Assembly (NCBI RefSeq): GCF_027587195.1
Contig: NZ_JAPDDP010000031.1
Coordinates: 1-64,000 of the forward strand
Length of the DNA: 64,000 nucleotides
Direction of reading: 5' to 3'
DNA from: Solirubrobacter phytolaccae
Lineage (GTDB): Bacteria; Actinomycetota; Thermoleophilia; Solirubrobacterales; Solirubrobacteraceae
Position numbers and translations under genes: made by a program. Position 1 is the first letter of the stretch. Every line of letters starts with the position of its first letter. This document shows, one piece after another, positions 27,757 to 34,582 of the stretch. Under the pieces are notes generated by a model, which made no database searches, was not told the DNA's origin, and was given only the letters and a program-made list of their open reading frames with translations.

Positions 27757-28815
27757 ATGCCCGTAACCCCCGCCCCAGGCGAGTCCGAGCTGGCTGAGCG
27801 TCTGGCGGCGCGGACGCTGGAGCTGATCGACATCCCCTCCGAGTCGCGGGAGGAGTCCGCGCTCGCTGCGCACGTCGCGAATGTGCTGCGTGAGGGCGGT
27901 GCGGTCGTCGAGGATCTGGGCGACGACTGCGTGCTCGCCTACCCCGCCGAGACGCGCCCGTCCGTGCTGCTCGCAGGGCACCTGGACACGGTGCCGGCGC
28001 AGGGCAACCTGCCGGGCCGGATCGAGCGCGGGCATGTGCACGGGCTCGGCGCGTCGGACATGCAGGGCGCGCTCGCGGTGATGATCGAGCTGGTGCTCGC
28101 GCGGGCGCCGTACGCGGCGCTGTTCTTCCCGCGCGAGGAGCTGCCGTCGGTCGACAGCGCGTTGACGCCACTGCTCTCGCGGCACACTCTGGATCACGAG
28201 TTCGTGGTCGTGATGGAGCCGACGGACGGCCAGCTGCACGCGGGCTGCCTCGGCAACATCAACGCGGCGTGGACGTTCAGCGGGCGTTCCGGGCACTCCG
28301 CGCGGCCGTGGCAGGCCGACAACGCGATCCACCGCGCCGCGATCGGGATCGCCGCGCTCGCCTCGGCGCCCTCGATCCCGGTGGTGTCGAACGGGTTGAC
28401 CTACCACGAGGTGGCGTCGGTCACGCGGGTGGAGGGCGGGATCGCCGCCAACGTGATCCCCGACCGCTGCGTCGCGCACGTCAACTACCGCTACGGCCCG
28501 GGCAAGACGCCCGAGGAGGCCGAGAAGCGCCTGCACGCGATGACGGCCGGGCTCGGCGAGCTGGAGGTCACCGGGAACTCCGGCGCCGCGCCCGCCGCGC
28601 TGGACCATCCGCTCGCGCAGAAGCTGATCAAGGCCGGCGATCTGACCGTCGCGCCCAAGCAGGCGTGGACGCCGGTGGCCGAGTTCGCCGCCGCGGGCTA
28701 CGCGGCCGTCAACTTCGGGCCGGGCCAGACCGCGCAGGCCCACCAGCGGACCGAGTCGATCACGATCGACGGCCTGCTGCACGCCCACCGCGTCCTGGAG
28801 GCCTTCGGCACGTGA
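27757..28815 (+). CDS. dapE: Succinyl-diaminopimelate desuccinylase
   Basis: A 352-residue M20-family metalloenzyme that removes succinate from N-succinyl-LL-diaminopimelate in lysine and peptidoglycan synthesis. The di-zinc ligands are visible: His and Asp in LLAGHLDTVPAQ, Asp in GLGASDMQGALAV, the Glu pair in FFPREELPS, Glu in VVMEPTD, and the late His in TAQAHQRTES. The dimerisation domain lies at about residues 165-275 (WTFSGRSGHSARPW). It is the actinobacterial DapE type. It overlaps the aminotransferase gene by 4 bp. ATG at 27757. Confidence 0.92.
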   Translation: MPVTPAPGESELAERLAARTLELIDIPSESREESALAAHVANVLREGGAVVEDLGDDCVLAYPAETRPSVLLAGHLDTVPAQGNLPGRIERGHVHGLGASDMQGALAVMIELVLARAPYAALFFPREELPSVDSALTPLLSRHTLDHEFVVVMEPTDGQLHAGCLGNINAAWTFSGRSGHSARPWQADNAIHRAAIGIAALASAPSIPVVSNGLTYHEVASVTRVEGGIAANVIPDRCVAHVNYRYGPGKTPEEAEKRLHAMTAGLGELEVTGNSGAAPAALDHPLAQKLIKAGDLTVAPKQAWTPVAEFAAAGYAAVNFGPGQTAQAHQRTESITIDGLLHAHRVLEAFGT

Positions 28816-29930
28816 TCAAGCTCTCCCCGGTCCTCGAGGGCCTCGGCACGTACCCGTTCGTGAAGTTGGACGCCGCTCGCGCCCAGCTGCGCGCGGCCGG
28901 GATCGAGATCATCGACTTCGGCATGGGCGAGCCGCGCGAGGAGACGCCCGCGTTCATCCGCGAGGCGCTCGCGGCCGCGATCACGCCGCTCGCCCCGTAC
29001 CCGACCGCGGTCGGGCTCCCCGAGCTGCGCGAGGCGATCGCGGCGTGGGCGGGCCGTCGCTTCGGCGCCGCGCTCGATCCCGACACGCAGGTGATCCCGA
29101 CCATGGGCTCCAAGGAGGCCGTGTTCTCCCTCGCCCACGTGTTCGCGGGCGACCAGGTGGTCGTGCCCCAGCCCGCCTACCCGGTCTACGACCGCGGCGC
29201 GCGCTTCGCCGGCAAGGAGGTCGTCGAGCTGCCGCTGCGCGAGGCGGACGGCTGGCTGCCGGACCTCGGCAGTGTCGACTGGTCGCGCGTCGCGATCCTC
29301 TGGCTCAACTACCCGAACAACCCGACGGGCGCCACCGCACCGGTCGAGTTCTACGCGGAGGCCGCCGCCCTGGCTCGCCGCCACGGGTTCGTGCTCGCGA
29401 GCGACGAGGCCTACTCCGAGCTCTACTTCGGCTCTGCCGCGCCGCAGTCCGCGCTCCAGCTCGACGACCTGACCAACGTCGCCGTCTTCAACACCCTCTC
29501 CAAGCGCTCCTCGATGCCCGGCTACCGCGCCGGCTTCGTCGCCGGCGACCCCGCCATCGTCGCCGCGCTCAAGAAGTACCGGCCCAACGTCGGCGTCGCG
29601 CCGCCCGAGATCCTCCAGCGCGCGGCCATCGCGGCCTGGAACGAGGAGGACCACGTCACCGAGGTCCGCGCCCGCTACCGCGCCAAGCGCGACCTCCTCC
29701 TCCCGGCCCTCGAGTCGCTCGGCCTGCGCTCGGCCGGCGGCGACGCGTCGTTCTTCCTCTGGATGGAGGGCTCCGACGCGCTCGCGGCCGAGTGGCTCGA
29801 AAAGGGCGTGATCGTCGCCCCGGGCTCGTTCTTCGGCCCGGCGGGCGAGGGCTACCTGCGCATCGCCTTCGTCCCACCGCTCGAGGTCATCGAAGCCGCG
29901 ATCAGTCGTTTGCGTGCAGCGCCGCGTTGA
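28812..29930 (+). CDS. dapC: N-succinyldiaminopimelate aminotransferase (fold-type I)
   Basis: A 372-residue PLP aminotransferase. It starts at GTG inside the dapE stop and has [27 protein letters not shown], the substrate and PLP loop [20 protein letters not shown], the PLP lysine in [17 protein letters not shown], and LRIAFVPPL at the end. Placed directly after dapE, it should make N-succinyl-L,L-DAP from the keto acid. LL-DAP aminotransferase or a general aminotransferase role is possible but less likely given the neighbours. It converges on dapD with a 29-bp overlap. Confidence 0.87.
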
Positions 29931-30858
29931 GGCCCTGCCAGTTGCCTGAGCGGGGCAGCGCCTCGACCGTGCCGGTCTTGGAGTTGCGGCGGAAGAGCAG
30001 GCCGTTCGCGCCGCTGAGGTCGCGGCCCTTGACGGTCTCGCCGTCCGGGAGGGTGATGATCGTGCCCGCGGTGACGTAGAGGCCGGCCTCGACCGTGCAT
30101 TCGTCGCCGAGCGAGATGCCGATGCCCGCGTTCGCGCCGAGCAGGCAGCGCTCGCCGATCGAGATGACCTCGGCGCCGCCGCCCGAGAGGGTGCCCATGA
30201 TCGATGCGCCGCCGCCGACGTCGGAGCCGTCGCCGACGAGGACGCCCGCGCTGATGCGGCCCTCGACCATGCTCGTGCCGAGCGTGCCGGCGTTGAAGTT
30301 CACGAAGCCCTCGTGCATGACGGTCGTGCCCTCGGCGAGGTGGGCGCCGAGGCGGACGCGGTCGGCGTCGGCGACGCGCACGCCGGCCGGCGCGACGTAG
30401 TCGGTCATGCGCGGGAACTTGTCGACGCTGAAGACCTGCACCGCGATGCCGTTCGCCCGGGCCTTGAGCTGCACCGCGGTCAGGTTCGCGGGATCGACGG
30501 GGCCGACGCTCGTCCAGGCCACGTTCGGCAGCACGCCGAAGAGGCCCTCGAGGTTGATCGTGTGCGGCTTGACGAGCCGGTGGCTGAGCAGGTGCAGGCG
30601 CAGGTAGGCGTCGGCGGTGTTGCGCGGCGGCGTGCTCAAGTCGGCGATCCGGGTCATCACGGACGCCTGGCGCACGTCGCGCAGGTCGTCGGAGCGCTGG
30701 CCGGTCGGCAGGCCGTGCTCGGCCGCCGCCTCCGCGCTCAGCTCGGTGAGGACCGACACGCCCTCGCCGCCGAGCTGCGGCGCGGGATAGAACACCTCCA
30801 GGATCCGGTCGCCCGAGTACGTCGCCAGCCCGGCACCCCAGGCCCCACCTTCGATCAT
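29902..30858 (-). CDS. dapD: Tetrahydrodipicolinate N-succinyltransferase
   Basis: A 318-residue enzyme that succinylates tetrahydrodipicolinate with succinyl-CoA. The C-terminal left-handed beta-helix carries hexapeptide repeats ([59 protein letters not shown]). The N-terminal domain and the 318-residue length match the actinobacterial DapD type. An AAGGAG stands 6 nt before the ATG. The start overlaps the stop of the NmrA-like gene by 4 bp. It is last in the - strand run miaA-dapF-NmrA-dapD. Confidence 0.92.
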
Positions 30859-31715
30859 GCCTGCTCCTTGAATGCGTCCACGTGGTCCTTCGCGAAGTCG
30901 TCGATGCTGCGGGGCTCGCGGCCCAGCGCGTCCTTGACGCCGGACGTCACCATCTGCAGCGCGCCGGCCGAGTAGAGCTCGAACTGCTCGCTCAGGCCCT
31001 CCGCGTTCCACGGCGGGACCCCGGCGCGCACGAGCTCGCGCTTGAGCGCCTCGACCGAGATCTCCTGCACCTCGATCTCCCGCCCGGCGGCCGCGAACAC
31101 CCGCTTCGCCTGGTCACGATAGGAGACGGCCTCGGGCCCGGACAGGCCGTAGGCCTTGCCCTCGTGGCCTTCCTCGGTGAGCGCGACCGCGGCGACCTCG
31201 GCCACGTCGCGGGCGTCGACGAGGCTGAACGCGGCGTCGGGGACCGGCGAGTAGAACGTGCCGTCGAGCACGCGCGAGCCCCACGCGAGCGTGTTCTGCA
31301 TGAAGCTCGTCGGGCGCAGCAGCGTCCAGCCCATGCCGGAGTCCTTGAGCGCCTGCTCGACGCGGGCGTGCGTGCGGGCGAAGCGCAGCGGCGCCTCGGG
31401 GTTCGCGCCGATCACGCTGAGCTTGACGACGTGCTGGACGCCCGCTTCCTTCGCGGTCTCCAGGAAGGCCTGCTCGAACTCGGACTGCATCGGGCCGATC
31501 GGCGAGCACAGGTACGCCCGGGTGACGCCCTCGAGCGCCGGGCCGAGCGTGCGCGGGTCACCGAGGTCGCCCGTGACCGGCTCGAAGCCGAGATCGCGCA
31601 GATGGTGGGCCTTGGTCTCGTCGCGCACCAGCGCGTGGGCCTCGGCGCCGCGGGCCTTGAGCGCCTTGATGACCTCCATCCCGGTCGTCCCGGTCGCACC
31701 GGTCACCAGCAGCAT
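30855..31715 (-). CDS. NmrA-like NAD(P)-binding protein
   Basis: A 286-residue atypical short-chain dehydrogenase of the NmrA/QOR2 type. The dinucleotide loop is [16 protein letters not shown], followed by [16 protein letters not shown] and [21 protein letters not shown]. There is no clear Tyr-x-x-x-Lys catalytic pair, as is normal in this group. It may reduce quinones or act as an NAD(P)(H) sensor. The ATG directly follows the dapF stop, with no gap, so it is coupled to dapF. I see no known link to lysine synthesis. Confidence 0.86.
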
Positions 31716-32528
31716 CTATTCGGCCTCCATGTCTTTCAAGAACTCCTCGCTCAGCTCGGCGCGGTAGATCGGCTTGGCCCATCCGGTCAGGTCCACGTGC
31801 AGCGACTCGTCGACGTCCACGACCAGCTCGCCACCGTCCAGGTGGACGGTCACGGGCGAGTCGCCGCCGCGGACCACGTGGGCCACGGCCGCGCCGCTCG
31901 CGCCGGTTCCGCTCGACAGCGTCTCCCCCACACCGCGCTCGAAGATGCGCGCGCGGATCGCGTCCGGGGCGATCTCGGTCCAGAAGGACACGTTCGTGCG
32001 GTTGGGGAACAGCTCGCTGTGCTCGATCCCCGGCCCGATCTTCGCCAGGTCCAGCGCGTCGGGATCCTCGACGCGGATCGCGCACTGCGGGTTGCCGATC
32101 GCGACGTGCTGGAAGCGGAAGCCGGCCACTTCGCCCGTGCCGTCCGGGCCGCCGCTCGGGAAGTTGGGCGAGCTCAGGCTCGCGCGGCCCATGTCCACGC
32201 TGCACGTCGTCGGCGACGTGATCGTCGGGCGGATCTCCCCGGCGAGCGTCTGGATCGAGAACGTGTCCGCGTCCGTCCAGTGGCGACGCAGGTACAGGAT
32301 CGCCTCGCGCGCCCCGTTGCCGGAGAGCTCGGCCTCGCTGCCGTCGGGGTTGTAGATCCGCAGCCGCGCGACGTAGCCCGGCTCATCCGGTTTGGTGAGC
32401 ACGAGCACGCCGTCCGCACCCGGCCCGAAGTGGGGATCGCACAGCGTCTTGATCGTCCGCGCGGACAGCTCGACCTCCTCGAAGATGAGGTAGTCGTTGC
32501 CCAGCGCCTGCCATTTTTCGAAGCGCAC
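31716..32528 (-). CDS. dapF: Diaminopimelate epimerase homologue lacking both catalytic cysteines
   Basis: A 270-residue protein of the DAP epimerase fold. Family motifs are LGNDYLIFEE at the N-terminus, PHFGPGADGVLVL, IYNPDGSEAELSGNGAREA, AIGNPQCAI and ERGVGETLSSGTGASGAA. In known epimerases the two motifs read CGNGxR and ACGTGA, and the cysteines are the acid and base. Here both are serine (Ser69, codon TCC; Ser206, codon AGC). The remaining cysteines (30, 109, 149) lie elsewhere. The start is GTG. The gene lies 4 nt after miaA, in a dap gene cluster, so DAP epimerisation remains the best guess for its role, but the chemistry would have to differ. Confidence 0.88.
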   Translation of the reverse strand: MRFEKWQALGNDYLIFEEVELSARTIKTLCDPHFGPGADGVLVLTKPDEPGYVARLRIYNPDGSEAELSGNGAREAILYLRRHWTDADTFSIQTLAGEIRPTITSPTTCSVDMGRASLSSPNFPSGGPDGTGEVAGFRFQHVAIGNPQCAIRVEDPDALDLAKIGPGIEHSELFPNRTNVSFWTEIAPDAIRARIFERGVGETLSSGTGASGAAVAHVVRGGDSPVTVHLDGGELVVDVDESLHVDLTGWAKPIYRAELSEEFLKDMEAE

Positions 32529-32532
32529 CGGC

Positions 32533-33390
32533 CTAGATCATGGCGACAAGCTCGGCGGCCACGTCCTCCGGGGCGCGATCCGTCATGTCGACGAGGTGCG
32601 CGCCGGGCAGCTTGCGCAGCCACGTGAGCTGGCGCTTGGCGTAGCGGCGGGTGTTGGTCTTCATCGCCTCGACGTCGCCTCGGAGCAGCTCGTCGAACCC
32701 GACGGCGCGGCGGGCGGTGGCGCCGGCGGTGTGCTGGACGCGCCGCACCTCCTCGGCCGCGCCCGCCGCGACCATCGCGTCTACACGGGCGTTGATGCGT
32801 TCGTACAGCGCCTCGCGGTCCATCACGAGCGCGGCGAGGAGCGTCGGGTGGCGGGTGTGCTCGGTCCACAGCTGGTCGCCGCTCGGGGGCTCCTGCCCGA
32901 CCGCGAGCAGCTCGTGCGCGCGGAGGATGCGGTGCGTGTCGGTGGGCTTGATGTCGAGGTGCGGCGGGAGCTCGGCGTGCAGCTCGGCGAGGTCGCGGGC
33001 GGCGAGTGCTTCGCGGATCGCCGGGTCGACGGGCGGGCGCAGGTCGAGGTCCGCGAGCGCGGCGCGCAGGTACAGGCCGGTGCCGCCGACGACGATCGGT
33101 CGCCTGCCTGTTGCGATCAGCCCGTCGATGGTGGCGTGCGCCTCGTGCGCGAAGGCGCCGGCCGAGTAGGTCTGGTCGATCGGCACGAAGCCCAGCAGCC
33201 GGTGCTCGAGCTGCGTCTGCTCGTGCGCGTCGGCGGCGCCGGTGAGGATCGGCAGGCCCGCATAGACCTGCATCGCGTCGGCGGAGACCGCCACTGGGTC
33301 CTCCCCGCGCTGGCGGAGCTGCTCCGCGACCGCGATGGCCACGGCGGTCTTGCCGACTCCTGTCGGCCCGAATACGGCGATGACGCGCAC
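32533..33390 (-). CDS. miaA: tRNA dimethylallyltransferase
   Basis: A 285-residue enzyme that adds a dimethylallyl group to A37 of tRNAs reading codons that start with U. The P-loop is VFGPTGVGKTAVAI, followed by the tRNA-binding VSADAMQVYAGLPILTG (SADSRQVY in most species), IVVGGTGLYLRAAL, and the C-terminal KTNTRRYAKRQLTWLRKLP. The length is slightly below the family average of about 300. The start is GTG, 25 bp from the divergent FIST gene. Its product is further modified by MiaB, which is encoded at 42.1-43.4 kb. Confidence 0.93.
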   Translation of the reverse strand: MRVIAVFGPTGVGKTAVAIAVAEQLRQRGEDPVAVSADAMQVYAGLPILTGAADAHEQTQLEHRLLGFVPIDQTYSAGAFAHEAHATIDGLIATGRRPIVVGGTGLYLRAALADLDLRPPVDPAIREALAARDLAELHAELPPHLDIKPTDTHRILRAHELLAVGQEPPSGDQLWTEHTRHPTLLAALVMDREALYERINARVDAMVAAGAAEEVRRVQHTAGATARRAVGFDELLRGDVEAMKTNTRRYAKRQLTWLRKLPGAHLVDMTDRAPEDVAAELVAMI

Positions 33391-33415
33391 GGGTGGGCAG
33401 TATCGTCACCCAGGC

Positions 33416-34582
33416 ATGTCCGTCCGCGTGGGAACCGGTTTGTCGACGCTCGCCGAGCCGCGAGCCGCCGCTTTGGACGCGGCCTCCGCGGCCGCCGCCG
33501 AGCTCGGCGACGCGCGCTGTGACCTCGTCGTCCTGTTCGCGTCCGGCGGTGTGCTGGGCGCGCCGGAGCTGGTGCTCGAGGCCGTCCACGAGATCCTCGC
33601 CCCGGAAGCGTTGATCGGCTGCGGCGCCGGCGGCGTGATCGGCCACGGGCGGGAGATCGAGAACGGCACCGCGGTGTCGGTCTGGGCCGCTTCGCTCGGT
33701 GAGGGCCACGCCACGTCGTTCCACGCCGCGGTCGAGGAGATCGAGCAGGGCACGGGCGCGCTGACCGGCATGGCGGACCTGACGGGCGCGGACGGCGCGG
33801 TGTTGCTCAGCGACCCAGTGACCTTCCCCACCGACGCGGTGCTGCGCTTCCTGAGCGAGTCGACGCCGATGCTGCCGCTGATCGGCGGGCTCGCGTCCGG
33901 GCAGCGCCTGGAAGAGGACGAGACGGTGCTGTTCATCGACGAGCGCGTGGTCGGCGAGGGCGCGGTCGGCATCCGGCTCGACGGCGTGGAGATGCTGCCG
34001 GCCGTGTCGCAGGGCGCCGCGCCGATCGGGCCCGAGCTGACGATCACCGCCGGCGAAGGCCACGTGATCGGCGAGCTGGCGGGCAAGCCGGCGCTGGAGA
34101 AGCTCCGCGACACGATCGAGGAGCTCCCGCCCGAGGAGCTGCGGCTCGTGCAGGGCGGGCTGCTCGTCGGGATCGTCGTGGACGCCAACAAGCCCGACTA
34201 CCTGCAGGGCGACTTCCTCGTCCGCGGGCTCGTCGGCGCCGATCCGGAGACCGGCCAGGTCGCGGTCGCCGCGGACGTGCACCCCGGGCAGGTCGTGCGG
34301 CTGCACGCGCGGGACGCGGAGAGCGCGGATCGCGACCTGCGCGAGGCTTTGAGCATCCGCATGACGGCGCTGGGCGGCCGGCCGCCGGCGGGAGCCTTGG
34401 TGTTCGCCTGCAACGGGCGGGGCCGCAGCATGTTCGGCCGCTCCGACCACGACGCCGAAGTCGTGCTCGACGCGCTGGGCGGCGCCCCGGCCGCCGGGTT
34501 CTTCGCCGCGGGCGAGATCGGCCCGGTCGGCGGTGGCTACTTCTTGCATTCCTTTACGGCGACGGTGGCGGTGTTCGCATGA
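33416..34582 (+). CDS. FIST N/C domain protein (putative sensory)
   Basis: A 388-residue cytoplasmic protein with the FIST_N (about 30-220) and FIST_C (about 225-370) domains. Supporting motifs are LIGCGAGGVIGHGREIENGT, LPLIGGLASGQRLEEDETVL and, near the end, FACNGRGRSMFG with GFFAAGEIGPVGGGYFLHSF. FIST domains are predicted to bind small ligands such as amino acids in signal transduction. No output domain is attached. It overlaps the SDR gene by 4 bp. The function is unknown beyond the domain call. Confidence 0.88.
   Translation: MSVRVGTGLSTLAEPRAAALDAASAAAAELGDARCDLVVLFASGGVLGAPELVLEAVHEILAPEALIGCGAGGVIGHGREIENGTAVSVWAASLGEGHATSFHAAVEEIEQGTGALTGMADLTGADGAVLLSDPVTFPTDAVLRFLSESTPMLPLIGGLASGQRLEEDETVLFIDERVVGEGAVGIRLDGVEMLPAVSQGAAPIGPELTITAGEGHVIGELAGKPALEKLRDTIEELPPEELRLVQGGLLVGIVVDANKPDYLQGDFLVRGLVGADPETGQVAVAADVHPGQVVRLHARDAESADRDLREALSIRMTALGGRPPAGALVFACNGRGRSMFGRSDHDAEVVLDALGGAPAAGFFAAGEIGPVGGGYFLHSFTATVAVFA

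What the first reader, a model, noticed from the sequence alone, without database searches (positions are those of the whole stretch)
31716..32528. Diaminopimelate epimerase homologue with both catalytic cysteines replaced by serine
The two acid/base cysteines of DapF sit in CGNGxR and xCGTGA. Here both motifs keep every other residue but read SGNGAR (Ser69, TCC) and SSGTGAS (Ser206, AGC). Two independent substitutions at both catalytic positions are unlikely to be errors, and the gene sits in an otherwise normal dap cluster with dapE, dapC and dapD. Family knowledge: in the related proline racemase family, Ser at one of the paired positions marks a distinct activity. Either Ser/Ser works as the acid/base pair with a changed mechanism, or this enzyme has another substrate and a second epimerase exists.
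Basis: partly seen in the sequence, partly recalled or inferred. Interest (0 to 1): 0.72.

Follow-up and report, generated by a model that had tools for sequence, protein, structure and literature searches.

The report
Serine–serine diaminopimelate epimerase
This soil actinobacterium makes an essential cell-wall and lysine building block with an enzyme whose two textbook catalytic cysteines are both serines; the same swap is fixed across whole bacterial orders, so the rule that this enzyme needs two thiols is probably wrong.

Summary
The gene is on the minus strand (31716–32528, GTG start, 270 aa) and has Ser69 (TCC) and Ser206 (AGC) where DapF has its two catalytic cysteines. It is not an oddity of one genome: 119 of 119 sampled sequences from the window's order and two sister lineages are Ser/Ser, other lineages of the class are Cys/Cys, and one genus is Ser/Cys. 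Every residue that binds diaminopimelate (DAP) is kept. The genome has no second DapF-fold protein and no meso-DAP dehydrogenase, yet has LysA and a DNPR-type MurE, and the literature gives meso-DAP in the walls of this order. Patulibacter americanus DSM 16676 also has a single Ser/Ser DapF and no dehydrogenase. Best explanation: a working DapF that uses a Ser/Ser acid–base pair. Wider sampling shows Ser/Cys, Cys/Ser and Ser/Ser enzymes arising repeatedly, often as sole copies. Ser at 206 goes with Val195→Ile: 11 of 11 Cys/Ser enzymes and all 66 sequences of the window's order have Ile, against 0 of 153 Cys/Cys. Activity has not been measured. Rating: new variant of a known kind.

The parts
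31716..32528 (-). dapF, Ser/Ser diaminopimelate epimerase, 270 aa, GTG start
32322..32324 (-). codon TCC, Ser69, at the position of the first catalytic Cys, at the N-terminus of helix 70-83 in the model
   Evidence: position computed from the gene's start at 32528
31911..31913 (-). codon AGC, Ser206, at the position of the second catalytic Cys, at the N-terminus of helix 207-219 in the model
   Evidence: position computed from the gene's start at 32528
31944..31946 (-). codon of Ile195, the Val-to-Ile change that accompanies Ser206
   Evidence: position computed from the gene's start at 32528
32533..33390 (-). miaA, tRNA dimethylallyltransferase, directly upstream of dapF as in nearly all relatives examined
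29902..30858 (-). dapD, tetrahydrodipicolinate N-succinyltransferase (probable ATG start at 30858)
   Evidence: TIGR03535, 469.6 bits
28815..29930 (+). dapC-type aminotransferase
   Evidence: best model TIGR03537, 362 bits, under its cut-off of 453.6
27757..28815 (+). dapE, succinyl-DAP desuccinylase (probable ATG start at 27757)
   Evidence: TIGR01900, 318.9 bits, cut-off 304.2
30855..31715 (-). NmrA-like NAD(P)-binding protein between dapF and dapD; no known part in the pathway

Best explanation
The gene encodes the organism's only diaminopimelate epimerase. It converts LL-DAP, made by the neighbouring DapD/DapC/DapE, into meso-DAP for lysine (LysA) and peptidoglycan (MurE). [quoted passage not shown] Each serine sits at the N-terminus of an active-site helix, whose backbone amides and dipole would lower the hydroxyl pKa in the closed, water-free site; one serine would take the alpha proton as alkoxide while the other donates from the opposite face. 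SHOWN by sequence: both serines, their invariance, conserved binding residues, absence of a second DapF-fold gene or of a DAP dehydrogenase, presence of the genes that need meso-DAP, and the Val195-to-Ile co-substitution. INFERRED: that the enzyme is active on LL-DAP, that the serines are the acid/base residues, and that Ile195 fills the space left by the smaller side chain.
For: Only one PF01678/TIGR00652 gene in G000 (99.1% complete) and in each of eight single-contig Ser/Ser genomes of the order. 119/119 Ser/Ser in the window's order and its sister lineages, never Thr, Ala, Gly or Cys, with N11, N60, G70, N71, N146, N179, E197, R198 and G207 invariant. Serines encoded by both TCN and AGY codons. 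dN/dS well below 1 against congeners, 0.22-0.24 by NG86. No meso-DAP dehydrogenase over the cut-off in G000 or any of the Ser/Ser class genomes tested, nor in P. americanus. LysA in all 31 genomes tested; own MurE carries DNPR. Meso-DAP is diagnostic for the order Solirubrobacterales (PMC3035278) and found in Solirubrobacter (PMC10722151). dapF sits beside LL-DAP makers in many genomes of the order, whether DapD/C/E or LL-DAP aminotransferase. Model pLDDT 96.2; best PDB match a ligand-bound DapF, Z 37.2, rmsd 1.5 A over 259 residues. Repeated independent Cys/Ser changes at both sites, with Ile195 in 11/11 Cys/Ser and 66/66 of the window's order against 0/153 Cys/Cys. Precedent: a natural Ser/Cys 4-hydroxyproline 2-epimerase in the related proline racemase superfamily is active (PMC4113996).
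Against: In enzymes that evolved with two Cys, Cys-to-Ser mutation nearly abolishes turnover: under 0.1% in PddB, and similar reports cited there for M. tuberculosis DapF (PMC8225329); greatly reduced in HisR (PMC11602996). No Ser/Ser enzyme of this fold has a measured epimerase activity that I could find. An unrelated PLP-dependent or other DAP epimerase cannot be excluded by homology search. Meso-DAP reports come from relatives, not this strain.
Confidence: 0.77

Rival explanations
1. The protein is a DAP epimerase, but the serines are not the acid/base residues: another residue, a bound water or hydroxide, or a modified side chain does the proton transfers and the serines only hold the site.
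For: Free hydroxyls are poor bases and Cys-to-Ser mutants of Cys/Cys enzymes are nearly dead. Group-specific changes exist in the window's order (His148 to Gln, Ala212 to Gly, Val195 to Ile).
Against: Among columns conserved in Cys/Cys enzymes, none shows a titratable residue gained by all Ser/Ser groups; the change His148 to Gln removes a titratable group instead. Strict Ser with no Thr or Ala and repeated Ser/Cys and Cys/Ser singles fit a like-for-like catalytic role.
Confidence: 0.1
2. The gene is a paralogue-like enzyme with another substrate, and meso-DAP is made by an unrelated, unrecognised epimerase.
For: Ser/Ser second copies exist beside another DapF in other lineages (families f26, f40; Lacrimispora), so Ser/Ser can mark a second role.
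Against: Here it is the only copy, in a dap cluster, with a full DAP-binding set, across a whole order. The second copies in f26 and f40 have a broken SGTG motif (SATG or SAAG), unlike this one. No DAP dehydrogenase.
Confidence: 0.09
3. A crippled, slow DapF is tolerated because demand for meso-DAP is low or LL-DAP is used in the wall.
For: Cys-to-Ser mutants of relatives keep traces of activity (PMC8225329); general knowledge that E. coli dapF mutants survive with LL-DAP in the wall.
Against: Meso-DAP is reported as the wall diamino acid of this order and MurE is of DNPR type; a decaying site would drift, whereas both serines and the binding residues are invariant over deep divergence.
Confidence: 0.04

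Closest known systems
DapF, diaminopimelate epimerase (TIGR00652 / PF01678; e.g. H. influenzae 1gqz, Anabaena 9mro, C. glutamicum 5m47)
   Same: Fold (Z 33-37 for these three), length, DAP-binding residues, gene context, place in pathway.
   Different: Both catalytic cysteines are serine; in the window's order also Val195 to Ile, His148 to Gln in the GNPH motif, and Ala212 to Gly.
Engineered C73S and C217S mutants of H. influenzae DapF (2q9h, 2q9j)
   Same: Same residue at one or the other catalytic position; same fold (Z 32).
   Different: Laboratory single mutants; here both changes are natural, together and fixed over deep time.
Ser/Cys 4-hydroxyproline 2-epimerase and Ser/Thr trans-3-hydroxyproline dehydratase of the proline racemase superfamily (PMC4113996)
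   Same: Natural Ser at the first catalytic position of a related fold, with epimerase activity in the Ser/Cys case.
   Different: Different family and substrate; in the epimerase only one position is Ser and a Cys is kept for the other face; the Ser/Thr enzyme is a dehydratase, not an epimerase.

Membership tests
DapF (TIGR00652 equivalog) | Profile score above the curated cut-off over the full length | tested here: met
   193.6 bits against 114.65, residues 2-260
DapF (TIGR00652 equivalog) | Two catalytic cysteines (CGNGxR and ACGTGA) | tested here: not met
   Ser69 and Ser206
DapF (TIGR00652 equivalog) | Residues that bind the DAP substrate (Asn, Glu, Arg set; contacts described for Anabaena DapF in PMC12039745) | tested here: met
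   N11, N60, N146, N179, E197, R198 conserved as in Cys/Cys DapF
DapF (TIGR00652 equivalog) | Two-domain DapF fold, catalytic residues at helix N-termini | tested here: met
   AF2 pLDDT 96.2; Z 37.2 to 9mro
DapF (TIGR00652 equivalog) | LL-DAP to meso-DAP epimerase activity | not testable with these tools
   needs enzyme assay or complementation; indirect genomic evidence
Proline racemase superfamily, Ser/Cys type | Same sequence family, with Ser at the first and Cys at the second position | tested here: not met
   Sequence families hit are DapF ones only; second position is Ser; about 11-16% identity to proline racemase or hydroxyproline epimerase structures

The most novel reading that the evidence does not exclude
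Cofactor-independent amino-acid epimerases do not need a thiol: DapF has switched between Cys/Cys, Ser/Cys, Cys/Ser and Ser/Ser several times, with a compensating Val-to-Ile change next to the conserved Glu-Arg pair, and whole bacterial orders build their wall and lysine with a hydroxyl-only acid/base pair.
Probability: 0.55. Interest if true: 0.78.

Novelty: new variant of a known kind. Interest (0 to 1): 0.63.

Why it matters
Papers on this enzyme group describe two catalytic cysteines as the rule, and DapF inhibitors such as aziridino-DAP bind covalently to them. A natural Ser/Ser DapF that is the only source of meso-DAP would make the question 'why thiols?' directly testable by comparing kinetics, pKa and isotope effects of natural Cys/Cys, Ser/Cys, Cys/Ser and Ser/Ser enzymes. 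It would also predict lineages insensitive to thiol-directed DapF inhibitors and to oxidation of the active site. The Val195/Ile195 co-change gives a specific structural handle. I found no report of natural Ser DapF in the papers I could search, but most subscription journals are not held.

Tried and rejected
Sequencing or assembly error: rejected, over 100 genomes agree. Misalignment hiding a nearby Cys: the only cysteines are 30, 109 and 149. General loss of cysteine: Cys30 is kept in 101 of 119 Ser/Ser proteins. Second Cys/Cys dapF: none; the only other hit in G000 was a 12.5-bit fragment with a stop, under the cut-off. Bypass by meso-DAP dehydrogenase: none over the cut-off in Ser/Ser class genomes; weak hits elsewhere are under the cut-off, except in Lacrimispora, whose Ser/Ser protein is one of two copies. 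A gained catalytic residue common to all Ser/Ser groups: none found among the columns compared. A single origin of Ser/Ser inside the class: undecided, the tree needs two changes but starred branches force only one. L089 gave a wrong ORF and was dropped. The phylum sample was chosen across families and includes second copies, so its counts are not frequencies.

Full report
OBSERVATION. The reported interval holds one gene on the minus strand: 31716-32528, GTG start, 270 codons and a stop. The protein reads PDGSEAELSGNGAR around residue 69 and RIFERGVGETLSSGTGAS around residue 206, with codons TCC and AGC. It passes the NCBIfam DapF equivalog by a wide margin (193.6 bits, cut-off 114.65) and matches Pfam DAP_epimerase twice. 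In alignments to solved DapF structures the two serines stand exactly at the catalytic cysteines.

CONTEXT IN THE WINDOW. miaA lies directly upstream on the same strand; an NmrA-like NAD(P)-binding gene and dapD lie downstream on the same strand; a DapC-type aminotransferase and dapE lie beyond on the plus strand, then hflX on the minus strand. The aminotransferase's best model is DapC but it is under that model's cut-off. The miaA-dapF pair is kept in almost all relatives examined. Across the order the partner next to dapF is either the succinylase set (window, Patulibacter americanus L272) or an LL-DAP aminotransferase (L268, L273; also L283 of another order); both routes end in LL-DAP and need an epimerase.

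HOW WIDESPREAD. A search of 299 genomes of the class found DapF in 280, almost always one copy. I extracted 156 distinct proteins: 119 Ser/Ser, 32 Cys/Cys, 5 Ser/Cys. Ser/Ser covers every sequence sampled from the window's order (families f1-f4), every one from family f7, and f11, plus one divergent second copy (L094). Cys/Cys covers f5, f6, f8, f10 and most of f9, and Ser/Cys one genus of f9. In the Ser/Ser set both positions are 119/119 serine, and the DAP-binding residues are invariant. Codons are mostly TCN with some AGY at both positions, so serine itself is held, not a codon. Against two congeners dN/dS is about 0.22-0.24 by NG86; more distant pairs are too saturated to use.

OUTSIDE THE CLASS. 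Sequences from the rest of the phylum, picked across families, gave 59 Cys/Cys, 12 Ser/Cys, 11 Cys/Ser and 8 Ser/Ser. Five of the eight Ser/Ser are second copies in genomes that also hold another, higher-scoring DapF, and their motif is broken (SATG or SAAG). Named genomes added Ser/Ser in two Acidobacteria MAGs and a Chloroflexi MAG, single copy in each, and one of two copies in Lacrimispora xylanisolvens, which also has meso-DAP dehydrogenase. The tree of 224 sequences needs at least 13 label changes, against 85 for shuffled labels: the swap is recurrent but stable within lineages. Ser/Cys and Cys/Ser genomes that I tested also lack a DAP dehydrogenase over the cut-off and have one DapF.

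IS IT THE ONLY EPIMERASE? In the window's own genome (7.7 Mb, 99.1% complete) neither the protein nor Pfam PF01678 finds a second member above noise. The same holds for eight single-contig relatives of the order (G198, G017, G228, G081, G139, G260, G093, G103) and for P. americanus DSM 16676; G009 of f7 has only a further fragment hit under the cut-off. meso-DAP dehydrogenase, the known bypass, is absent from all Ser/Ser class genomes tested. The needs are present: LysA in all, and a MurE whose motif reads SDNPRSEAP (L175); DNPR is the signature of meso-DAP-adding MurE (family knowledge). [quoted passage not shown] That the window belongs to this order is inferred from its nearest named relatives: Solirubrobacter, Conexibacter and Patulibacter.

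STRUCTURE AND MECHANISM. The AlphaFold2 model (pLDDT 96.2, pTM 0.91) puts Ser69 just before helix 70-83 and Ser206 just before helix 207-219, the arrangement that stabilises the thiolates in Cys/Cys DapF. Its best matches are ligand-bound DapF structures (9mro Z 37.2, rmsd 1.5 A; 3ejx Z 36.1), followed by O-ureidoserine racemase (Z 35.0). [quoted passage not shown] A natural Ser/Cys hydroxyproline epimerase, active and crystallised with substrate (PMC4113996), shows that serine can serve on one face. The difficulty is real: mutating one Cys to Ser in enzymes built for Cys costs more than 99.9% of activity in PddB (PMC8225329) and much of it in HisR (PMC11602996).

A CO-SUBSTITUTION. Comparing groups, the column that separates Cys/Ser from Cys/Cys cleanly, besides 206 itself, is residue 195, two before the conserved Glu-Arg pair. 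It is Val in 151 of 153 Cys/Cys (Thr in 2, Ile in none), Ile in 11 of 11 Cys/Ser, Ile in 66 of 66 of the window's order, and Ile in the Acidobacteria, Lacrimispora, Chloroflexi and L094 proteins; family f7 mostly keeps Val, so the change is not obligatory. Cys/Ser alone needs three changes on the tree, so this is convergent. The likeliest reading is that Ile fills space when Cys206 becomes Ser; this is inference, since I could not read model coordinates. The window's order also fixes His148 to Gln and Ala212 to Gly (66/66 each).

VERDICT. A real, lineage-wide Ser/Ser variant of DapF, most likely the organism's working DAP epimerase. By sequence, fold, context and binding site it is DapF; by the catalytic-cysteine criterion it fails, so it is filed as a variant. 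Activity is the missing measurement.

Noticed in passing
window 30855-31715 (-): NmrA-like NAD(P)-binding gene inserted between dapF and dapD; not seen at this place in the relatives examined.
   Followed up: partly
L268 7251-8414; L273 10837-12006; L283 2059-3213, compared with window 27757-30858: Next to dapF the LL-DAP-making step differs between relatives: an LL-DAP aminotransferase in some, the DapD/DapC/DapE set in others, within one order.
   Followed up: partly
L245, L261, L262, L263, L264: Second DapF copies with Ser/Ser and a broken SGTG motif (SATG or SAAG) in genomes that also hold another DapF: candidate paralogues of other function in two actinobacterial families.
   Followed up: no
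L233-L238, L252, L253, L246 (Ser/Cys); L220-L224, L241, L249, L256-L258 (Cys/Ser): Whole actinobacterial families with one Cys and one Ser in a sole-copy DapF; tested members lack meso-DAP dehydrogenase.
   Followed up: partly
L094 (G050 contig C119): A second, divergent Ser/Ser DapF on a short contig in a genome with 4% contamination; groups with Chloroflexi and Lacrimispora proteins, so probably a foreign contig or transfer.
   Followed up: partly
window 33335-34582 (+): FIST N plus FIST C domain protein divergent from miaA, kept beside miaA in several relatives.
   Followed up: no
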